Positions 34,575-46,844 of a stretch of DNA of 64,000 nt are shown one piece after another; positions within the stretch are counted from its first letter, which is position 1, and the number at the start of each line of letters is the position of its first letter. The DNA comes from Paracoccaceae bacterium. GTDB taxonomy: Bacteria > Pseudomonadota > Alphaproteobacteria > Rhodobacterales > Rhodobacteraceae. Position numbers and translations under genes: made by a program. Location: contig CANGHD010000001.1 in assembly GCA_947453525.1 (NCBI GenBank), forward strand, positions 1 through 64,000, read 5' to 3'. A model generated the notes under the pieces. The model had not been told where the DNA came from. It saw only the letters and a list, made by a program, of their open reading frames with translations, and searched no databases.

Positions 34575-35603
34575 TCAGGCCTTGCGGGCCCCGATCAGCC
34601 GCCCCGCGCCAATTTCGGCCAGAAACTCCCGGCTGGCTTCGGTGCCGAAATGCGGCACATGCGCCAGACCCGGAAAGCGCGCCTTCATTTCGGCGGCGAC
34701 CTCGGGCGGCAGGCGGTTCACGGTGGCGTCGTTCACCATCAGGCTTTCCGAGGGCACGCCCTCGGCATAGATGATCTCGTGCCGATCGAAGACCAGACTG
34801 CAATAGTCGACAAAGCCGCCCTCGCGCAGATAGACCGCAGTCCCATCGACCAGATCGCGCGCCTGTACCAAGAGTTCCGAGGTGGGCAGGCCGGGCGCGC
34901 GCTGGCGCTGGTACAGAAAGACCCGGTGATGCTGGCTCACGATCAGATCGCCCGCGTTGCCCAATGTACCCGCCGTGATGACCACCGGCGCAAAGCTGCC
35001 CACGGCGCGCAAGCGGGCATGGCCGATCCAGCGCAAGGGTTGGCGGCCATGATCGCGGGTCAGAACCGCCATGCCCGGCACCAAGGCCTCGATGGCGCGC
35101 TGGCTGCCGTCGGCCAGCGTGATCATGGTGCCGCAGGCAAAGGACAGACACAGAACATCGGCCAGAAGCAGATCGGCGGGCACGGGGTCCACCGCCAAAA
35201 GCGTATAGTCCAGCCCGGCGCCCACCGGCGACAGAGGCAGCGCCAGGCGCAAGCCATCTTCGAGCGACAGAAACAGCAGCTCCACCCTGTCGCCATCCGG
35301 TGCCATCAGGGTGTAACGCGCCTCCAGCCGCACGGCGGCACCGGGCCGGCCCACCTCGGACCCCTGCGCCACCGATTGCGCCCCCTCTGCGGGCTTGCGC
35401 AACACAAGCCGCAAGGGCTGCGCTTGATGATAGAGCGCATAAATGTCCCCGGCGCAGACCTCGTCCGGGCCGCACAGGCCATCGCCCTGGTTTGCGCCCT
35501 GTGCGACATAGATATCCTCGGCCGCGAAGACCTGACAGGCATAGCCCGGCGCCGAGGCAGCGGATGCTGTGGAAATGGGCAGGGCGGCGGCCGACAGTTC
35601 CAT
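34575..35603 (-). CDS. Hint (hedgehog/intein) domain protein
   Basis: 342 residues. N-terminal region about 1-140 with beta-rich, unassigned sequence (VFAAEDIYVAQGANQGDGLC). A Hint domain follows at about 150-300: CLSFACGTMITLADGSQRAI (potential nucleophilic Cys), GMAVLTRDHGRQPLRWIGHA, and LIVSQHHRVFL. Such proteins are common in Rhodobacterales; their autoprocessing and targets are poorly known. There is no clear C-extein nucleophile after the last Hint motif, so self-splicing is unlikely. Confidence 0.8.
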   Translation of the reverse strand: MELSAAALPISTASAASAPGYACQVFAAEDIYVAQGANQGDGLCGPDEVCAGDIYALYHQAQPLRLVLRKPAEGAQSVAQGSEVGRPGAAVRLEARYTLMAPDGDRVELLFLSLEDGLRLALPLSPVGAGLDYTLLAVDPVPADLLLADVLCLSFACGTMITLADGSQRAIEALVPGMAVLTRDHGRQPLRWIGHARLRAVGSFAPVVITAGTLGNAGDLIVSQHHRVFLYQRQRAPGLPTSELLVQARDLVDGTAVYLREGGFVDYCSLVFDRHEIIYAEGVPSESLMVNDATVNRLPPEVAAEMKARFPGLAHVPHFGTEASREFLAEIGAGRLIGARKA

Positions 35604-38332: not shown

Positions 38333-39275
38333 ATGGATCACAACCGTTTGTTTTTGTTGTGCTTCACCACTCGGTTTGTCTGATGATACCCGCCAGAATA
38401 CCCGCATTCGTCTTTGGTATCCTCGCCAGCCAGCCCAAATGACCGAAGCCTTCGCAAAACTTATCGCTGAACGGCAGACCGGTGTAAACCACGCGGATGC
38501 GCCATTCCAACGCGATCCTGCGGTGCGGTGATCGCGCCGCCCGCGGGTTCCGCGCCACTCTGGAGTCGTGATCCGCCGGCCATGCGATTGGCTGTAAAGT
38601 GTACTCTGCGCGTCTCTGGTGAAGGGATTGGGTGCTTGGATCTCCGAAAGAGGAAGACGGCTGCCGGAAGGCACCAGTCTGCTTCAGCTTAAGATACTGT
38701 ATTTCTGTATCTTTATGGTTGCCATTGAATGTCACATCCACAAGGAATGCCGCACCCGTGGCCCTTGCCTTGGTGCATGGCAAGGCACGTGCTGTGCGGT
38801 CTGATCTTTGGCGTGAAGGCTTGGAACGGCAGCATGATGAGCCCCTTGCGCGTGAACGCATCGACCGAACCGGGAGTTCGACAGCGGATGTCTGGGAGCG
38901 AGTTGGCAGCGAGGACGCAGATGCGCCGTGACAGTGTTCAGGACCGGTCCGTCACATCGCACCGTCGGCGGACGACAGGGCCAATCTCAATGGGCAATGT
39001 GGCGATCGTGGCGCGACGCTCTTTGTTGGTGGCGACCCGCAACCTTTTGGCGGTTCGCCTTCAGATCCTGAACCCAGGTGCCTCGCGGACGGTGCCATCG
39101 GTCTGGAGCCTGCCGTGATACGATATGCCGCACTCTGCGGCCCGCAGTCGCCCATCTTTTGGGCGCGAACAGCTCTGCGAACCATGACGCACCCGCAAGG
39201 CTCCCACACCAGCCGGTCTTCAGATCACCACCTGACCTGCCCCGACGCGGCGGCCATCCAAGACAGAGGCGACAC
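38333..39275. other. Non-coding stretch at the left edge of the accessory region
   Basis: 943 bases without a convincing gene. Part of it (38680-38740) is clearly AT-richer than the surroundings. Short frames on both strands lack recognisable motifs. It contains an inverted repeat at 38691-38713 and must hold the trpG promoter and that of the large glycosyltransferase gene. It could be eroded mobile DNA, but no transposase fragment was recognised. Confidence 0.45.
38691..38713. repeat. Inverted repeat AAGATAC-N9-GTATCTT
   Basis: Perfect 7-bp arms separated by 9 bases in an AT-rich pocket. It could be an operator or a remnant terminal repeat. Confidence 0.4.
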
Positions 39276-42200
39276 ATGCCCATCCTAAAGGCCTTCGACA
39301 GGGTCATCTTCTTCGCACATGTCCCAGAGTGCGGCGGCACGGCGGTTGAGCGGTATTTGCGGGCGCGTTTCGGGTCGGTTGCCTTTCTGGACGACCATTT
39401 CGATGCCGTGCCCGGCTCGCGCCATTGGACGCGGACATCGGCGCAGCATATTCCAGTTGATATCCTCGACCGGCTTTTTCCTGCGGACTTCTTCGACGCG
39501 ACCTTCGCCGTCGTCCGCCAACCTGTCGACAGGCTCGTTTCGGAATATCACTTCCTGCGCGATCACCTCCGTCGGATCGGGCCGGAAGAAAGCTTCTCGG
39601 ACTGGATCCGGCATCTGGAGCGGGCCTTGGCCGAAAACCCGTGGGTCCATGACAATCACGTCAGGCCTATGGTAGATCTCGTGCCAAAGGGCGCAACGGT
39701 GTTCCGGCTGGAAGCGGGTCTGGACAAGCTGATCCCATATCTGGACGGTCTCTTCGGCACGTCGGGGGATTGCCCAGGATTCGCCCGTGTTCAGGAGCGC
39801 GATCCCAACCTTCCCCGTATCGTGCCCCGTCAGGAAGACATCGCTTTCATCGAGCGGATGTACCATCAGGATTTCGAGACGTTCGGATATGCGCGGCAAG
39901 CTGTGCGTCTGACCGGGGGCATTCGCTTGGCACCTGCCTCGCCGCGATCTGGCGTCACCTTGCCTGACGCGGGTCGGATCGACACGGCGCGCCGGTTCCA
40001 CGACAACGGCGTCGCCTGCTTCCTCAAAGGCGAGATCGCCGATGCCCACGCCAATTTCGTCTACGCGCTGAATTGCGCGCCGGATGACGGGGGGCTCCAT
40101 TCATTGATCGCCAATACCGCGCTGCGGTTGGGCGCGCCGCACCTTGCCGCACATCACGCCTTGACCGCGCTGGACCGGCAAGCCGGCAATGTCGATGCGC
40201 TTGTCGCGCTGGCCGGCGCGCGGTTGCGGCTCAGGGACCCCCGCGCGCGCGCGACGGTCGAGGCGCTGCAAGGCTACGAGCAGCTTGGCGATTTCCGGCA
40301 CTTGCTCCAGATCGCCCTGTCCTGTGGCGAGGAGGCACCGGAAGTTGTGCTGAACGACATCGCCGGCTATCTTGAAAGCCACCCTAAGGACGTCTTTGCG
40401 GGCGAACTTTTGTCCAAGACATTCCGCGCTTTCCAGACTGCGGGCGACGACGCGCGCTTCCGGGCGTTTCTGGACGGGATCGGTCTTCTTGCCGCCCAAC
40501 CCGGCCGCGCGCCGCTGGGTCGTCCCGCCCCCGGACAGGCCGCCTGTGTCGACGTGATCATCCCGGTCTACAATGCGATCGCGGCGCTTGAGGTCTGTCT
40601 TGCCTCGATCCGCACATGGCATTCCCGCTCCATCCGTCGGATCATCCTGGTGGATGACGCTTCCTCGTCAGAATCAGCAGCCTGGCTGGATCACTATCGG
40701 GACAGTCATACCGATGTGACCCTGGTCCGAAATGCCCAGAACCTTGGCTTCACCCGCGCGGTCATGGCGGGCGTCGGGCACAGTGACGCGCCTTACATGC
40801 TGTTCCTGAACAGCGACACCGAGGTGACACCGCATTGGCTGGATGGCATGTTGCAGGCGATGCAGGCCGATCCCTGGACGGCGCTGGTCGGCCCTCTCTC
40901 CAACAACGGATATCACCAGACCATTTTTCCGCCGAAGGCGCTCGACGGACGGCAAACCGCGGATCATGCCACCCACGATATTGCCGCGCTGGTCCGGTCG
41001 GGTTCACACAAGGTGTTTCCCCGTGTCCCATTCCTTTCCGGCTTCTGCCTTCTGGTTCACCGCGAAGCCTTTGACCGCGCCGGAGGTCTGGACTGCCAAG
41101 CCTTCCCCTACGGCTATTGGGAAGTGCAGGACCTTGCGCTAAAGCTGTTCGATCTCGGGTACATGGCAGTGATCGCGGACAATGTCTATGTCCATCATGC
41201 CGGGGCCGGCAGCATCTCGGAGGAGCGCCGACAGGATCTGGTGCTTGAGGGCACGACGAAAATGTATGACCGGTATTCCGGCCTGCGCGTCCTGATCGCC
41301 GAGGCGGTCAGCGCCTCGGACCCTGTGGTAGCCCGGCACCGGATGGCCGCGAGGACTTGGGCCGCGCAAAATCTGTACGCACCACCCGCGCCGCCGATTT
41401 GGCCCGATGTGCTGAAAGGCAGGGGGGGCGACCCCCGGCTTGTCACCCGAAAACAGCCGCCGGCCTCGGTCGCCGGACGGGAAGTGTGCCTCTTTGTCAC
41501 GCATTGCCCGCTGGGGATGCCGCTGGACTATACGCTGACCTATATCGAAGCCTTGAAACAGACGGGGCTTTTGGTGATCGTCTGCCTCATCGTCGAGGAT
41601 CTGGGCATTCCGGTGGCGGACAGCTTGGCGGATCTGGCGGATGGGCTCGTCCTGCGGGAGAATGCCGGCTACGATTTCGGTGCCTGGGCCGATCTTTTGC
41701 GGCACTTCCCGCAAGTCTGGAGCGCGGCGCGACTTTACTTCGTCAACGACAGCATCCTGGGGCCTTTCGGGTCCCTCGTCCCGATCATCGAAAGCATTCG
41801 CGACCGTGACGCGGGCTTCTTTGCGCTGAGCGAATCCACGATGCCACAGTACCATGCCCAAAGTTTCTTCTTTGGATGGAGCCGGAAGAACCTCGCCGCC
41901 GAACCGCTGAGAAATTTCTGGAAAGAGGTGACCAACTTACCCGACAAAGTGGACGTGGTTCTGACCTATGAATTCGGCATTGCTCCGGTTAGCCCGCTTT
42001 TGCCGGACACCTCCCGCCAGATCGTGTTCGGATTTGGGCCAATTCTGGGTTGCCCGGCTTCCGAAATTGTGGGTTTCAACCCGACCCACAACGGCTGGCA
42101 ACGGCTTCTGGCGGCGGGCTTTCCGTTCATAAAGACGGACCTCGTGCGGGACGGGGTCGCACATATCGACAGCGCGGATTGGGAACAGGTTTGTGCGGCA

Positions 42201-42344
42201 CAGGGTGCCGATGTCTCTGCCATGCACCGCAGCATCGAAGGATCACGACTGAACCGCCTGACTTATTCGGTACGGCCATCGACCGATCTTGCTCCAAAGG
42301 ATCGAGCCCTGGACGTTGAAAATGAGTCGGCGGTTCTGAAGTAA
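39276..42344 (+). CDS. Multidomain sulfotransferase-GT2 glycosyltransferase-RgpF protein
   Basis: 1022 residues. About 10-205 is a sulfotransferase-like domain: FFAHVPECGGTAVER (12-26) as the PAPS 5'-phosphosulfate loop and FAVVRQPVDRLVSEY (77-91) as the 3'-phosphate motif. About 235-400 is helical and TPR-like. About 424-670 is a GT2 domain: VDVIIPVYN (425-433), LVDDASS (458-464), NSDTEV (512-517) and the acceptor-loop WEVQDLALK. About 735-960 matches RgpF-type rhamnan synthesis: VCLFVTHCPLGMPLDY, RENAGYDFGAW (794-804), YFVNDSILGP (821-830). ATG 39276 follows GAGG. Likely role: making a sulfated surface polysaccharide (inference). Confidence 0.82.
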   Translation: MPILKAFDRVIFFAHVPECGGTAVERYLRARFGSVAFLDDHFDAVPGSRHWTRTSAQHIPVDILDRLFPADFFDATFAVVRQPVDRLVSEYHFLRDHLRRIGPEESFSDWIRHLERALAENPWVHDNHVRPMVDLVPKGATVFRLEAGLDKLIPYLDGLFGTSGDCPGFARVQERDPNLPRIVPRQEDIAFIERMYHQDFETFGYARQAVRLTGGIRLAPASPRSGVTLPDAGRIDTARRFHDNGVACFLKGEIADAHANFVYALNCAPDDGGLHSLIANTALRLGAPHLAAHHALTALDRQAGNVDALVALAGARLRLRDPRARATVEALQGYEQLGDFRHLLQIALSCGEEAPEVVLNDIAGYLESHPKDVFAGELLSKTFRAFQTAGDDARFRAFLDGIGLLAAQPGRAPLGRPAPGQAACVDVIIPVYNAIAALEVCLASIRTWHSRSIRRIILVDDASSSESAAWLDHYRDSHTDVTLVRNAQNLGFTRAVMAGVGHSDAPYMLFLNSDTEVTPHWLDGMLQAMQADPWTALVGPLSNNGYHQTIFPPKALDGRQTADHATHDIAALVRSGSHKVFPRVPFLSGFCLLVHREAFDRAGGLDCQAFPYGYWEVQDLALKLFDLGYMAVIADNVYVHHAGAGSISEERRQDLVLEGTTKMYDRYSGLRVLIAEAVSASDPVVARHRMAARTWAAQNLYAPPAPPIWPDVLKGRGGDPRLVTRKQPPASVAGREVCLFVTHCPLGMPLDYTLTYIEALKQTGLLVIVCLIVEDLGIPVADSLADLADGLVLRENAGYDFGAWADLLRHFPQVWSAARLYFVNDSILGPFGSLVPIIESIRDRDAGFFALSESTMPQYHAQSFFFGWSRKNLAAEPLRNFWKEVTNLPDKVDVVLTYEFGIAPVSPLLPDTSRQIVFGFGPILGCPASEIVGFNPTHNGWQRLLAAGFPFIKTDLVRDGVAHIDSADWEQVCAAQGADVSAMHRSIEGSRLNRLTYSVRPSTDLAPKDRALDVENESAVLK

Positions 42345-42404
42345 ATCGTCTGGGTGCCGTATGAGGGGCGGGGGATCTTTTTCCGAAATGGTCGCGATGA
42401 TGAT

Positions 42405-42452
42405 GGACGGCCTATGCTTTTTGCAGACGGACGGCCTGTGCTTTAGCAGATC
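42405..42452 (+). repeat. Two tandem imperfect 24-bp repeats
   Basis: Both units begin GGACGGCCT[A/G]TGCTTT and continue with TTGCAGAC or AGCAGATC. They directly abut (42405-42428, 42429-42452). They lie in the 257-base gap between the convergent large glycosyltransferase and sulfotransferase genes. Confidence 0.6.
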
Positions 42453-42601
42453 CACCTCCGGCCGATCTGCCGATGCGAAAATACGGGTTCAAGGTTCCGC
42501 GAAAGAAACGAGTGGCCGGTCATGATTTTATCTTGACCGTACAAAGACCGATCCAAGCTGCGTGTGTCATATTAAAGATTTGGCTCCATCCATGCCACCT
42601 T

Positions 42602-43777
42602 CTATGCCTTACCGGTGTAGGCCCTACCCTCGTAGCGCCCATGGTTCAGATAATGATAAGCAGCATCCATACCTGCCGCCGCAACATCCGAGTTGAGAAG
42701 AAGATACAGGGCAGGGTCGAAATCGGCGGGGAGTCCGGGAAGATTCAAGGCCGGAGCCCTCACTTCCTGTGATGCAAGGCATTCTTGCACAACCCCCATG
42801 AACTGCTTCATGTTGTCTTCACTGAACCCCGGATCCACAGGACCGGCGGCGTGACGAACCTTGGTTCTGAGGGCCTCACCTGAAGGAAGATGCAGGTTGA
42901 TTGTCGCAATCTCATCCGCAAAGGCCTGCAACAGCCGTTCATCCAGTTCCTGACTATATGGATCCCGGCGCCGCTCCGGTTGGGCGCGAAAACGATTGAC
43001 CAGCAACGCGTTGAGAAGGGGCGACCCGATGGTCTCATGCGCCATAACGATGGCTTTCGCCTGCCAATACGAAATAGAGGGGTTGTGTTCCCCGGCCGCC
43101 CGTTCTCTCAGGCCTGCAACTGCGCTGTCCACGCCAATCTCTTGCAACAGCGTCTCAATCAGGTCATGTTTATGCATGTCGTAGTTGCGCAATCTGACAT
43201 CAAACCCTGCATCAAGCAGAGGAGGTAGCTTCCGCCAGATCCCGTTATCGTTCGTCATTCGACGTTCAATATCCTGTTCGAAATGATCCCTACACAGATT
43301 GGTCTTTACTCTCTGCTTCCAAGAGGAAACGGAATGATCATACACATCACGAACAAAGGCTATTAGTGTCAGCTTGTAATACCTCGAAATATCAAGCAAC
43401 CAGGCGGTATGGTCGGAGTTGAGGCACTGACCTATGAATTCACCGGACAATACAACCGTATCCTGTGGTGATTGCGCTATGGCAGCTTCTGCTGCCGGCT
43501 TCAGATACCTGTCGATCACTGCAACCAAATTGCCGTCAAACCGATCCCGACTTGCGTATTGCTGCATCACATGCATCAAGTTTCCGCTACACACCCCTGA
43601 CGACTGGACCTGTTCCGATTCCGGGAAAGGGTAGCTGATGCCAAGCTGTGCCAGACGGACTGCATTGTGGGACAAAAATGCCTGAATCGCGCTGGATCCG
43701 GTTTTCCCAGCCCCGATGTGGATGAAAACGCGCTTGCCGGCACGAGAGTTCTGATTGTCGTTTGCCACAGAGTTCAT
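42602..43777 (-). CDS. P-loop sulfotransferase-like protein with a C-terminal NSDVAAAG/HYLNHG motif
   Basis: 391 residues. The N-terminal loop RVFIHIGAGKTGSSAIQAFL (about 16-35) fits a PAPS-dependent sulfotransferase, as does AFVRDVYDHSVSSWKQRV further on. The last 45 residues read FDPALYLLLNSDVAAAGMDA then AYHYLNHGRYEG, a short motif that recurs at the ends of bacterial polysaccharide-modifying enzymes and glycosyltransferases. GC content is visibly lower than in neighbouring genes, a sign of recent transfer. It converges with the multidomain gene. The sulfate acceptor is unknown. Confidence 0.75.
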   Translation of the reverse strand: MNSVANDNQNSRAGKRVFIHIGAGKTGSSAIQAFLSHNAVRLAQLGISYPFPESEQVQSSGVCSGNLMHVMQQYASRDRFDGNLVAVIDRYLKPAAEAAIAQSPQDTVVLSGEFIGQCLNSDHTAWLLDISRYYKLTLIAFVRDVYDHSVSSWKQRVKTNLCRDHFEQDIERRMTNDNGIWRKLPPLLDAGFDVRLRNYDMHKHDLIETLLQEIGVDSAVAGLRERAAGEHNPSISYWQAKAIVMAHETIGSPLLNALLVNRFRAQPERRRDPYSQELDERLLQAFADEIATINLHLPSGEALRTKVRHAAGPVDPGFSEDNMKQFMGVVQECLASQEVRAPALNLPGLPADFDPALYLLLNSDVAAAGMDAAYHYLNHGRYEGRAYTGKA

Positions 43778-44759
43778 TCTTCCCGGTTGGGCGCCTGCGC
43801 CGTGTCATCGTTTTGCAAACGCATCCGGTTGATGCGTGAGCCTTTGAACTGACGCGCCTTGGCGTCAACATCTACAACATGGAATACACCGGTATTGCCA
43901 GTCTGCGGTGTCGATGGCCCCTGCTCCCTCGACACTGCGCAGGCCTTAGTGAAGCGAAATCTTGCGCTTAACAAGCGCTGCCGCGCGTGCGCGGCAGGCT
44001 GACGCATCAGAAATCTTGCAGATCGCTGCCAAGGTTTCTCCGGGTGCCAAACCGTGTCGGTCGGACCCATCTGCAATCTTGGCCCGGGCTGACAAGCGCC
44101 AGAACGGCCGTGGCGCAAAGGCGCTGATTGGTGGGGCTGGCATCGGCACGTTCACGCGGGCGTCGTCAACGGAACGGCGGATTCGGGCATGGTGCGGGCC
44201 CGCGATATCCTCCGAAAATGCACGCGGGGCGAAGACAAGCCGGATTTTGCGGCCGTCAACCCCAGGGACTCTGCGGCGGCAACGCTATCTTCCGCTTCAT
44301 CGGTGCGGCGTTTCATCATTGGAGCGTGATCAAGGCGGCCCCGTACGGCACTTCGACGATCCTGTCGGCAAATGCGACGGGCCATGCGGGGCTGACACGC
44401 GGGTGCCGGTGACGCTTGGCACGTCTGCCGACCCGACCGCCGCCGACTTGGTCACGAGATCGTCGATCGGTTGCCTGACGCTTCGGGTGCCACGGCTCCG
44501 GTTTGGCGCGCCGGGGTCGCTCCATGTTTCAACGGTGGGCGTGGCCGGACCAGACTCTTCCGCGCGGTTGAGGACCTTGAAGCCTGCCCCCGATCCTGGA
44601 AAGCATTGCGGTGCTGACCCGTGCCATTTGGGGGTGAACCCGGCGTCGGACAGGGTTATACAGAGCCTGAAAAGCACGGCAGCATGAAGGGATACCCGCA
44701 AAAGGGATCGGTGCCGCCGGGCGGGCCTTGGCCTATTGGGGACGTGAGGGAGCACTGAA
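43778..44759. other. Non-coding or eroded stretch at the right edge of the accessory region
   Basis: 982 bases with no convincing gene. On the plus strand near 44150-44400 protein-like fragments appear in two frames (HAGVVNGTADSGMVRARDIL; GGNAIFRFIGAAFHHWSVIK), which would fit a decayed gene. I cannot name it. The promoter of the sulfotransferase gene and of the deacetylase gene should also be here. Confidence 0.4.
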
Positions 44760-46844
44760 GTGGCGCGGAGTTTTGCGAGCGGTCTGGTCTGGGGCTTTGT
44801 GGTCATGGGGGCGGGTTTTGCCCTGATGTCGCAACTGACGCCACTGCCCAACAGCCGGTTGTCCAATCCCAAGGCTGTCGTTGCGGGGAATTCGGCGACA
44901 GTGACCCCGAAGGACGCGCAGCCCATAGACGCAGTGCAAGCGGCTCTTCCTCCGCCTCAACCCGCCACGACGGCGGGGAACACGGCCAAGGCCGTTGTGG
45001 ACAACTCCAGTGGGACAGGAACCGTGGGTCAGGCTTCGGACCCTGCAACGGCGGCACCTGCGACGGCGGCAAATGGCGCCGACCCGGCGGATGGAACCAC
45101 GAAGGTCACGGCGGCGACGGGTCCGTCGGTCAGCCCGTCGGTGGCGCAGGCGAGCATTCCGGTGTCGTCTGGTGCGGCACCGGCCGCTGGGACGACGGGC
45201 GTTTCGCCGGCAACACACGCGGCGGCTCCAAAACCGGTCGGGACGGGTCAGGAGGGTATGGCTGCGCTGCAGGCCCCGAAAGTCGACGGGGCGCCGGGTT
45301 TGACCGCGCCGACGGGCAATCAAGTCTCGATACGCGTCACGCCCGGGTCTGCCGCGCCCGCTCTGCCCGCCCTCGCTCCTCCCGGGGCCAGCTTGCCGGG
45401 TGCAATCGATGCCAAGACGTCAGGAACGCAGACCACGACCGGTGAGCCGAAGAGTCCTGACACCGGACCGGGTGATGCGATGGCCAGCGCCCCGGGTGCC
45501 GGGTCTGCACCCAAGGCCGCAACGCAGCCAGCCCGGGCCGCGGATGCTCTGCCCAAGGCCGACACGGCCACCGCGATTGCCGCGGCACCCCGGATTGCCG
45601 CGCCGGCGGCACGGGAAACTTCGGTGACAGCACCCGCTTCGCCCGAACCCGTGGCGCCCGAGGCTGCCGCACCTTTGGCGCAGGGTGCGGCACCTGCGGC
45701 GGGCCCGTTGCCGGAGGTTCCCGCTGTGGCCGAGGCTGCCCCGGCCCTGTCGTCGTTGGATGCGGCGCTCACGGCACCCGATGCGGACCAGATCCCGACT
45801 GCACCTGTGCCTCAGCCCGATCCGCTCGGGTCGAAAGATGGGCTTTTGGTGCCGTCGCAGGGGGCTGGCCTTTCCGAACCGACGCGGTTGCCGCAGATCG
45901 CGGCGCCGGATGATCCGGGTCTTGCAGCCGCACCGATGCCGGTTGTCGTAGCGCCTGATCCCGCCGATGCGAGCCCCGCAGCGCCGCGGGCGCTGGCGCC
46001 GCGCTTGCTCAAACCGGATGCGGCGCAGTTGCCGGCGGTCAAGCCGCTCGGGAGCACTGTGCCAACTGGGCTGAAACCAAGCGTGCCGGGGGTGGAAACC
46101 AATGCCCTGCCGCAGATCGGCGGTGCGACCAAGGGAACCGCTGCGGTGGTCCCGACCGATGCTGCGGCGGATCAGCCGATCGTGAAATACGCGCGCCCCT
46201 TCCAAAGCCGGGACGGCAAGCCGCTGTTCGTCATCCTGCTGCATGACGTGGGGGCTGCGGGGGTGAGTCGCGCGGAACTGGCCAAGCTGCCCTTCCCGGT
46301 GACCTTCGTGGTGGATCCCCTGGCGACCGACGCGAAACTGGCGGAAAAAACCTTCCGCGATGCCGGGCAGGAAGTGCTGATGCTGGCCAATGGCATTCCG
46401 GACGGCGCGACGGCCGGTGACCTTGCCCAGACCTTCCAGACCCTGCAGGATATCTTGCCCGAGGCGGTGGGCGTGATCGATCAGGACACCGCCGGGTTTC
46501 AGGACAACCGCGCCCTGTCGGGTCTGGTCTTGCCGGTCATCGCTGATCAGGGCCGCGGCCTTGTGACCTATGACCAGGGTTTGAATGCCGCCGATCAGAT
46601 CGCCCGCCGTGACGGATTGCCCGCCGCCGTGATCTTCCGTCATCTGGATGGCGCGGGCGAAAGCCAGTCGGTGATGCGGCGCTACCTTGACCGCGCGGCT
46701 TTCAAGGCCGCCCAGGAGGGGTCGGTGGTGGTGATCGGCGATACGCGGGCCAATACAGTGGCCACGATCTTGCAGTGGACGATCGAGGGCAAGGCCTCGG
46801 GCGTCGATCTCGCTCCGGTGACGGCGGTGATGGGGCGGAAGTGA
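44760..46844 (+). CDS. Divergent polysaccharide deacetylase (YibQ family) with a long Ala/Pro-rich linker
   Basis: 694 residues. An N-terminal membrane anchor (ASGLVWGFVVMGAGFALMSQ) is followed by about 430 residues of low-complexity Ala/Pro/Thr sequence. The C-terminal domain about 470-690 (KPLFVILLHDVGAAGVSRAE; LPFPVTFVVDPLATDAKLAE; EVLMLANGIP; DQDTAGFQDNRALSGLVLP) is of the YibQ family, which has a deacetylase-like fold but incomplete metal ligands. The linker should span the periplasm or peptidoglycan. GTG 44760, with GAGGGAG upstream. It converges with trpE. Confidence 0.85.
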   Translation: MARSFASGLVWGFVVMGAGFALMSQLTPLPNSRLSNPKAVVAGNSATVTPKDAQPIDAVQAALPPPQPATTAGNTAKAVVDNSSGTGTVGQASDPATAAPATAANGADPADGTTKVTAATGPSVSPSVAQASIPVSSGAAPAAGTTGVSPATHAAAPKPVGTGQEGMAALQAPKVDGAPGLTAPTGNQVSIRVTPGSAAPALPALAPPGASLPGAIDAKTSGTQTTTGEPKSPDTGPGDAMASAPGAGSAPKAATQPARAADALPKADTATAIAAAPRIAAPAARETSVTAPASPEPVAPEAAAPLAQGAAPAAGPLPEVPAVAEAAPALSSLDAALTAPDADQIPTAPVPQPDPLGSKDGLLVPSQGAGLSEPTRLPQIAAPDDPGLAAAPMPVVVAPDPADASPAAPRALAPRLLKPDAAQLPAVKPLGSTVPTGLKPSVPGVETNALPQIGGATKGTAAVVPTDAAADQPIVKYARPFQSRDGKPLFVILLHDVGAAGVSRAELAKLPFPVTFVVDPLATDAKLAEKTFRDAGQEVLMLANGIPDGATAGDLAQTFQTLQDILPEAVGVIDQDTAGFQDNRALSGLVLPVIADQGRGLVTYDQGLNAADQIARRDGLPAAVIFRHLDGAGESQSVMRRYLDRAAFKAAQEGSVVVIGDTRANTVATILQWTIEGKASGVDLAPVTAVMGRK

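What the first reader, a model, noticed from the sequence alone, without database searches (positions are those of the whole stretch)
39276..42344. Apparent sulfotransferase + GT2 + RgpF fusion in one 1022-residue protein
Three activities normally on separate proteins appear in order: a PAPS-type sulfotransferase (PECGGT loop, RQPVDRLVSEY), a helical linker, a GT2 transferase (IIPVYN, DDAS, NSDTEV) and an RgpF-like rhamnan-synthesis domain (ENAGYDFGAW, YFVNDSILGP). This suggests a single enzyme that extends and sulfates a surface glycan. I know of GT2-RgpF fusions but not of this three-part order, so novelty is inferred.
Basis: partly seen in the sequence, partly recalled or inferred. Interest (0 to 1): 0.75.

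Follow-up and report, generated by a model that had tools for sequence, protein, structure and literature searches.

The report
Sulfotransferase–glycosyltransferase fusion, possibly damaged here
This gene really does join a sugar-sulfating domain to two sugar-adding domains in one bacterial protein, an arrangement kept in several related species, but the copy in this window has lost the lysine thought essential for sulfation.

Summary
One open 1022-residue frame (39276-42344, +) carries, in order, Sulfotransfer_2 (8-206), a TPR-like helical spacer, Glycos_transf_2 (427-601) and the N-terminal part of RgpF (782-901); the three named domains pass their Pfam cut-offs. It is no frameshift artefact: four more full-length orthologues and one partial occur in related genomes, five of 16 held species of the genus carry it, and all domains are under purifying selection. 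A congener has the same core behind a different sulfotransferase family (Sulfotransfer_3), another lacks any sulfotransferase, and free-standing relatives of the sulfotransferase lie in rml, PAPS-synthesis and O-antigen settings. Most likely it is a modular enzyme coupling glycan assembly to O-sulfation. This is the family's catalytic PAPS-loop residue, so sulfation by this copy is doubtful. The gene and a second, divergent sulfotransferase-like gene form a 6.3-kb insert between trpG and a deacetylase-like gene, absent in a congener. Donor, acceptor and activity are untested. New variant of a known kind.

The parts
39276..42344 (+). Fusion protein, 1022 aa: Sulfotransfer_2 - TPR-like spacer - GT2 - RgpF (N-terminal part)
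   Evidence: Open frame, Pfam, orthologues
39276..39899 (+). Sulfotransferase domain, residues about 1-208; PAPS loop HVPECGGT with K18E; 3'-phosphate motif P83-xx-R86-xx-S89 kept
   Evidence: Pfam PF03567; comparison of 30 sequences and alignment A4
39327..39329 (+). Codon GAG (Glu18) where relatives have Lys (28 of 29) or Arg (1 of 29)
   Evidence: Sequence and comparison
39963..40490 (+). TPR-like helical spacer, residues about 230-405
   Evidence: Weak TPR hits, helices in the low-confidence full-length model, clear TPR hits in looser relatives
40536..41375 (+). GT2 glycosyltransferase domain, residues about 421-700; D461, D514, E616 and D619 invariant
   Evidence: Pfam PF00535, alignment A1
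41451..42281 (+). RgpF-like domain, residues about 726-1002; ENxGYDFGAW and NDSxxGP motifs; model resembles the GT-A nucleotide-sugar fold
   Evidence: Pfam PF05045, alignment A3, model pLDDT 76.9 and Foldseek
42602..43777 (-). Convergent neighbour, 391 aa, divergent sulfotransferase-like protein (P-loop-like HIGAGKTGSS, RDVYDHSVSSW)
   Evidence: No Pfam hit itself; 44% identical homologue in G406 lies directly behind a GT2-RgpF gene and hits Sulfotransfer_1 just below cut-off
38336..44621 (.). About 6.3-kb insert holding both genes, between trpG and the polysaccharide-deacetylase-like gene; lower GC than most of its flanks
   Evidence: In G078 the flanking sequence is contiguous, 10 bases apart; GC profile

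Best explanation
The gene encodes a modular glycan-assembly enzyme, presumably cytoplasmic (localisation was not tested). The GT2 domain and the GT-A-like RgpF domain would each add a sugar, plausibly rhamnose for one of them, to a growing surface polysaccharide; the N-terminal PAPS-dependent sulfotransferase would sulfate a sugar of the same chain, and the TPR-like spacer would hold the domains or a partner together. Shown: domain order, conservation across species, intact GT2 and RgpF motifs, two sulfotransferase families on the same core. Inferred: substrates, coupling, rhamnose. In the window's copy K18E probably abolishes or strongly reduces sulfation, leaving a glycosyltransferase, with the neighbouring sulfotransferase-like gene as a possible substitute.
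For: Pfam domains above cut-off in the window protein and in three orthologues. Same order in five of 16 genomes of the genus. The core is paired with Sulfotransfer_3 in G078 (34.9 bits, cut-off 27), so two sulfotransferase families were joined to the same core, which argues that the pairing matters. Free-standing relatives (35-47% identical) lie between rfbB and rfbD in Tateyamaria, one gene away from a PAPS-synthesis gene in strain SC52, between flippase and O-antigen ligase genes and beside a glycosyltransferase. Published clusters of sulfated-rhamnose capsules hold RgpF and sulfotransferase as separate genes, adjacent in Cobetia (PMC11766843; PMC11641403). The genome has APS kinase and rmlC with rmlB-, rmlD- and rmlA-like frames beside it. 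Purifying selection on all domains.
Against: K18E removes the catalytic PAPS-loop lysine (role in PMC11625862). In none of the neighbourhoods listed does the fusion sit in a recognised polysaccharide cluster, though G310 and L029 have a few glycan genes beside it and two of the contigs are too short to tell. The PDB profile search with the sulfotransferase alignment gave no significant hit (best E 0.073, SULT1C3). The full-length model is too poor to show the sulfotransferase fold (pLDDT 45.5). The RgpF match covers only the first third of the profile.
Confidence: 0.55

Rival explanations
1. The protein modifies surface proteins rather than a polysaccharide: the TPR-like part binds a target protein, as in the flagellin glycosyltransferase FlmG, and the other domains glycosylate and sulfate it.
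For: FlmG is TPR plus glycosyltransferase and its N-terminal domain binds flagellin (PMC7591256). RTX-type calcium-binding genes flank the fusion in G310, a similar gene lies near the G309 core gene, and calcium-binding genes lie near two plasmid relatives; a CsgG-like gene lies near the G078 fusion.
Against: The free-standing sulfotransferases sit in rml, flippase and O-antigen settings; to my knowledge RTX genes are common in this family; none adjoins the window gene.
Confidence: 0.2
2. In this lineage the sulfotransferase domain is a dead or structural remnant and the protein is only a glycosyltransferase.
For: K18E and H82Q are found in no other sequence compared; a related core without any sulfotransferase exists (G309).
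Against: The sulfotransferase domain of the window copy is as conserved as the others (window versus L027: dN/dS about 0.09), and the other motif residues R81, P83, R86, S89, H128 are kept. This rival speaks of the window copy only, not of the family.
Confidence: 0.2
3. K18E is a sequencing or assembly error and the protein is an ordinary active member.
For: One base (AAG to GAG) in a draft assembly of 302 contigs, 83% complete.
Against: A second unusual change (H82Q) lies in the other PAPS-binding motif; no reads could be examined.
Confidence: 0.05

Closest known systems
Sulfotransfer_2 (PF03567) polysaccharide sulfotransferases
   Same: Profile match above cut-off, 3'-phosphate motif PxxRxxS, company of PAPS and rml genes in relatives
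   Different: Fused to two glycosyltransferase-type domains; PAPS-loop Lys replaced by Glu in the window copy
RgpF (PF05045) rhamnan-synthesis proteins
   Same: ENxGYDFGAW and NDSxxGP motifs, profile match above cut-off
   Different: Only the N-terminal part of the profile; C-terminal domain of a fusion; substrate unknown
Sulfated-rhamnose capsule clusters of Cobetia marina KMM 1449 and Vibrio sp. KMM 8419 (PMC11766843, PMC11641403)
   Same: Sulfotransferase, RgpF and rml genes in one pathway
   Different: Separate genes in a capsule cluster; here one gene outside any recognised cluster
FlmG, TPR-glycosyltransferase of Caulobacter (PMC7591256)
   Same: TPR part joined to a glycosyltransferase
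   Different: Described as TPR plus glycosyltransferase only; acts on flagellin

Membership tests
Sulfotransfer_2 (PF03567) | Profile match above curated cut-off | tested here: met
   41.4 bits against 22
Sulfotransfer_2 (PF03567) | Catalytic Lys (or Arg) in the PAPS-binding loop | tested here: not met
   Glu18 in the window copy; Lys in 28 and Arg in 1 of 29 relatives. Met in the orthologues. The window domain is therefore called a relative by descent, not a working sulfotransferase
Sulfotransfer_2 (PF03567) | 3'-phosphate motif PxxRxxS | tested here: met
   P83, R86, S89 invariant in A4
Sulfotransfer_2 (PF03567) | Sulfotransferase fold | tested here: inconclusive
   Full-length model below pLDDT 50 over 1-234; no significant PDB sequence hit
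Glycosyltransferase family 2 | Profile match and conserved Asp residues | tested here: met
   88.7 bits against 23.3; D461, D514, D619 invariant
RgpF (PF05045) | Profile match above curated cut-off | tested here: met
   42 bits against 25, N-terminal part only
RgpF (PF05045) | Rhamnosyl transfer | not testable with these tools
   No assay; donor unknown
TPR proteins | TPR profile above cut-off | tested here: not met
   No Pfam TPR hit in P0001 and only a weak NCBIfam hit; looser relatives of the core pass

The most novel reading that the evidence does not exclude
A family of single-chain enzymes in which the sulfotransferase part is exchangeable (Sulfotransfer_2 or Sulfotransfer_3) and sulfates the sugar that the fused GT2 and RgpF domains add, so that sulfation is coupled to chain growth, spread as small inserts between related bacteria.
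Probability: 0.25. Interest if true: 0.65.

Novelty: new variant of a known kind. Interest (0 to 1): 0.4.

Why it matters
If the coupling is real, the lysine-bearing orthologues would be enzymes that build and sulfate a bacterial glycan in one chain, and the occurrence of two sulfotransferase families on one core would give a natural test of which part sets the sulfation. The window copy would show whether the fused protein is kept when its sulfotransferase loses its key residue.

Tried and rejected
Frameshift or assembly fusion: rejected, orthologues in independent assemblies. Anti-phage defence: no PADLOC hit. Phage or viral origin: only weak GT2-region similarity in phage records, no match in viral contigs. 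Mobile element at the insert: none recognised; the upstream flank has no second copy in the genome and no plasmid match. Sulfotransferase-specific relaxation in the window copy: not seen. Conserved neighbour: in the genus the sulfotransferase-like partner was found only in the window's genome and as a fragment in G305. Structure of the whole protein: model too poor to use. Papers describing this exact fusion: none among those the searches returned; most subscription journals are not held.

Full report
The frame at 39276-42344 (+) is open over 1022 codons. Pfam finds Sulfotransfer_2 at 8-206, Glycos_transf_2 at 427-601 and RgpF at 782-901, each above its curated cut-off. Between the first two lies a helical stretch with weak TPR similarity; looser relatives of the core show clear TPR hits there.

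It is a real gene family. A genome scan gave orthologues over the full length at 64, 57 and 59% identity and one cut by a contig end, and the genus search added one more, 65% identical to the L030 protein and 63% to P0001. Five of 16 held genomes of the genus, the window's own included, carry the four-part form. Outside the genus the four-part form was not found in samples of 298 and 397 genomes of the family, 395 of the order (GT2-RgpF query) or 385 of the class, at the thresholds used; these samples overlap and the first look scores only a few candidates per genome.

The core is modular. G078, in the same genus, has Sulfotransfer_3 in place of Sulfotransfer_2 before the same core. G309 has TPR-GT2-RgpF alone. 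G303 also has TPR-GT2 with a GT4-type end, and G406, of another genus, has a Sulfotransfer_3-like part (just below cut-off), TPR, GT2 and WbsX in one frame, besides a GT2-RgpF gene that ends near a contig end. In a tree of 30 sulfotransferase domains the five fused ones group together (support 81/84), so one origin of the Sulfotransfer_2 fusion is favoured but not strongly.

Position 18 is Glu (GAG); of 29 relatives 28 have Lys and one has Arg. The review PMC11625862 describes this residue as the conserved catalytic lysine, or arginine in one case. Position 82, His in most relatives, is Gln. The rest of the PxxRxxS motif is kept. Selection on the domain is not relaxed relative to the others (synonymous sites are saturated in several pairs, so only the closer pairs are informative). 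I therefore treat sulfation by the window copy as doubtful and by the orthologues as likely.

Function is inferred from company. Free-standing relatives of the sulfotransferase lie in an rfbCB-sulfotransferase-rfbDA run, with one gene between them and a bifunctional PAPS-synthesis gene, between oligosaccharide flippase and O-antigen ligase genes, beside rfbA and beside a multidomain glycosyltransferase. In Cobetia marina the authors note sulfotransferase genes adjacent to RgpF and rml genes and a capsule with 2-sulfated rhamnose (PMC11766843); Vibrio sp. KMM 8419 has a cluster with RgpF, rml, PAPS and sulfotransferase genes and a capsule with 3-sulfated rhamnose (PMC11641403). The genome of the window has an APS-kinase-bearing frame and an rmlC gene with rmlB-, rmlD- and rmlA-like frames beside it, the last three named by me from their sequences.

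The RgpF-like domain, modelled from 15 sequences, has mean pLDDT 76.9, and its best Foldseek matches are nucleotidyltransferases and glycosyltransferases of the GT-A type, best E about 1e-5 but TM-scores mostly 0.3 to 0.45. A second sugar-transferring domain is thus suggested, not shown. The full-length model is unreliable.

The surroundings show an insert. In G078 the trpG side (window 38335) and the deacetylase side (window 44622) are 10 bases apart, while the window has about 6.3 kb between them, with GC mostly 0.51-0.65 against 0.64-0.73 in most of the flanks. An insertion here or a loss in G078 would both fit; the lower GC and the varied locations of the fusion in other genomes favour insertion. 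The stretch holds the fusion gene and the convergent 391-aa gene. That second protein has no Pfam hit, but its 44% identical homologue in G406 lies directly behind a GT2-RgpF gene, the two frames overlapping, and matches Sulfotransfer_1 just below cut-off. Two instances of this linkage are suggestive only; the other fusion-bearing congeners lack an intact partner.

Verdict: a correct and useful observation, a conserved domain combination made of known parts that I found described nowhere in the papers searched, and a copy whose sulfotransferase is probably impaired. Substrates, product and the coupling of the activities remain to be tested.

Noticed in passing
window 42605-43777 (-): Divergent sulfotransferase-like protein without a Pfam hit, ending in a short FDPxxYLxxNxDVA...HYLxxGRxEGR motif; similar motifs occur in glycosyltransferases such as L024
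   Followed up: partly
window 34575-35603 (-): Protein with a Hint_2 domain (123.6 bits)
   Followed up: no
window 44760-46844 (+): Divergent polysaccharide deacetylase domain at the C-terminus of a long Pro/Ala-rich protein, between the insert and trpE
   Followed up: no
L065 690-4448 and 14554-18999: Large RTX-type calcium-binding frames on both sides of the G310 fusion gene; L065 5980-6885 is a Sulfotransfer_3 protein next to it
   Followed up: partly
L079 4947-8498 (-): One 1184-residue frame with Sulfotransfer_3-like, TPR, GT2 and WbsX domains
   Followed up: partly
G000 contigs C27, C61 and C51 (L059, L060, L062): Three further Sulfotransfer_2 matches in the window's genome, the best at 117.7 bits
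   Followed up: no
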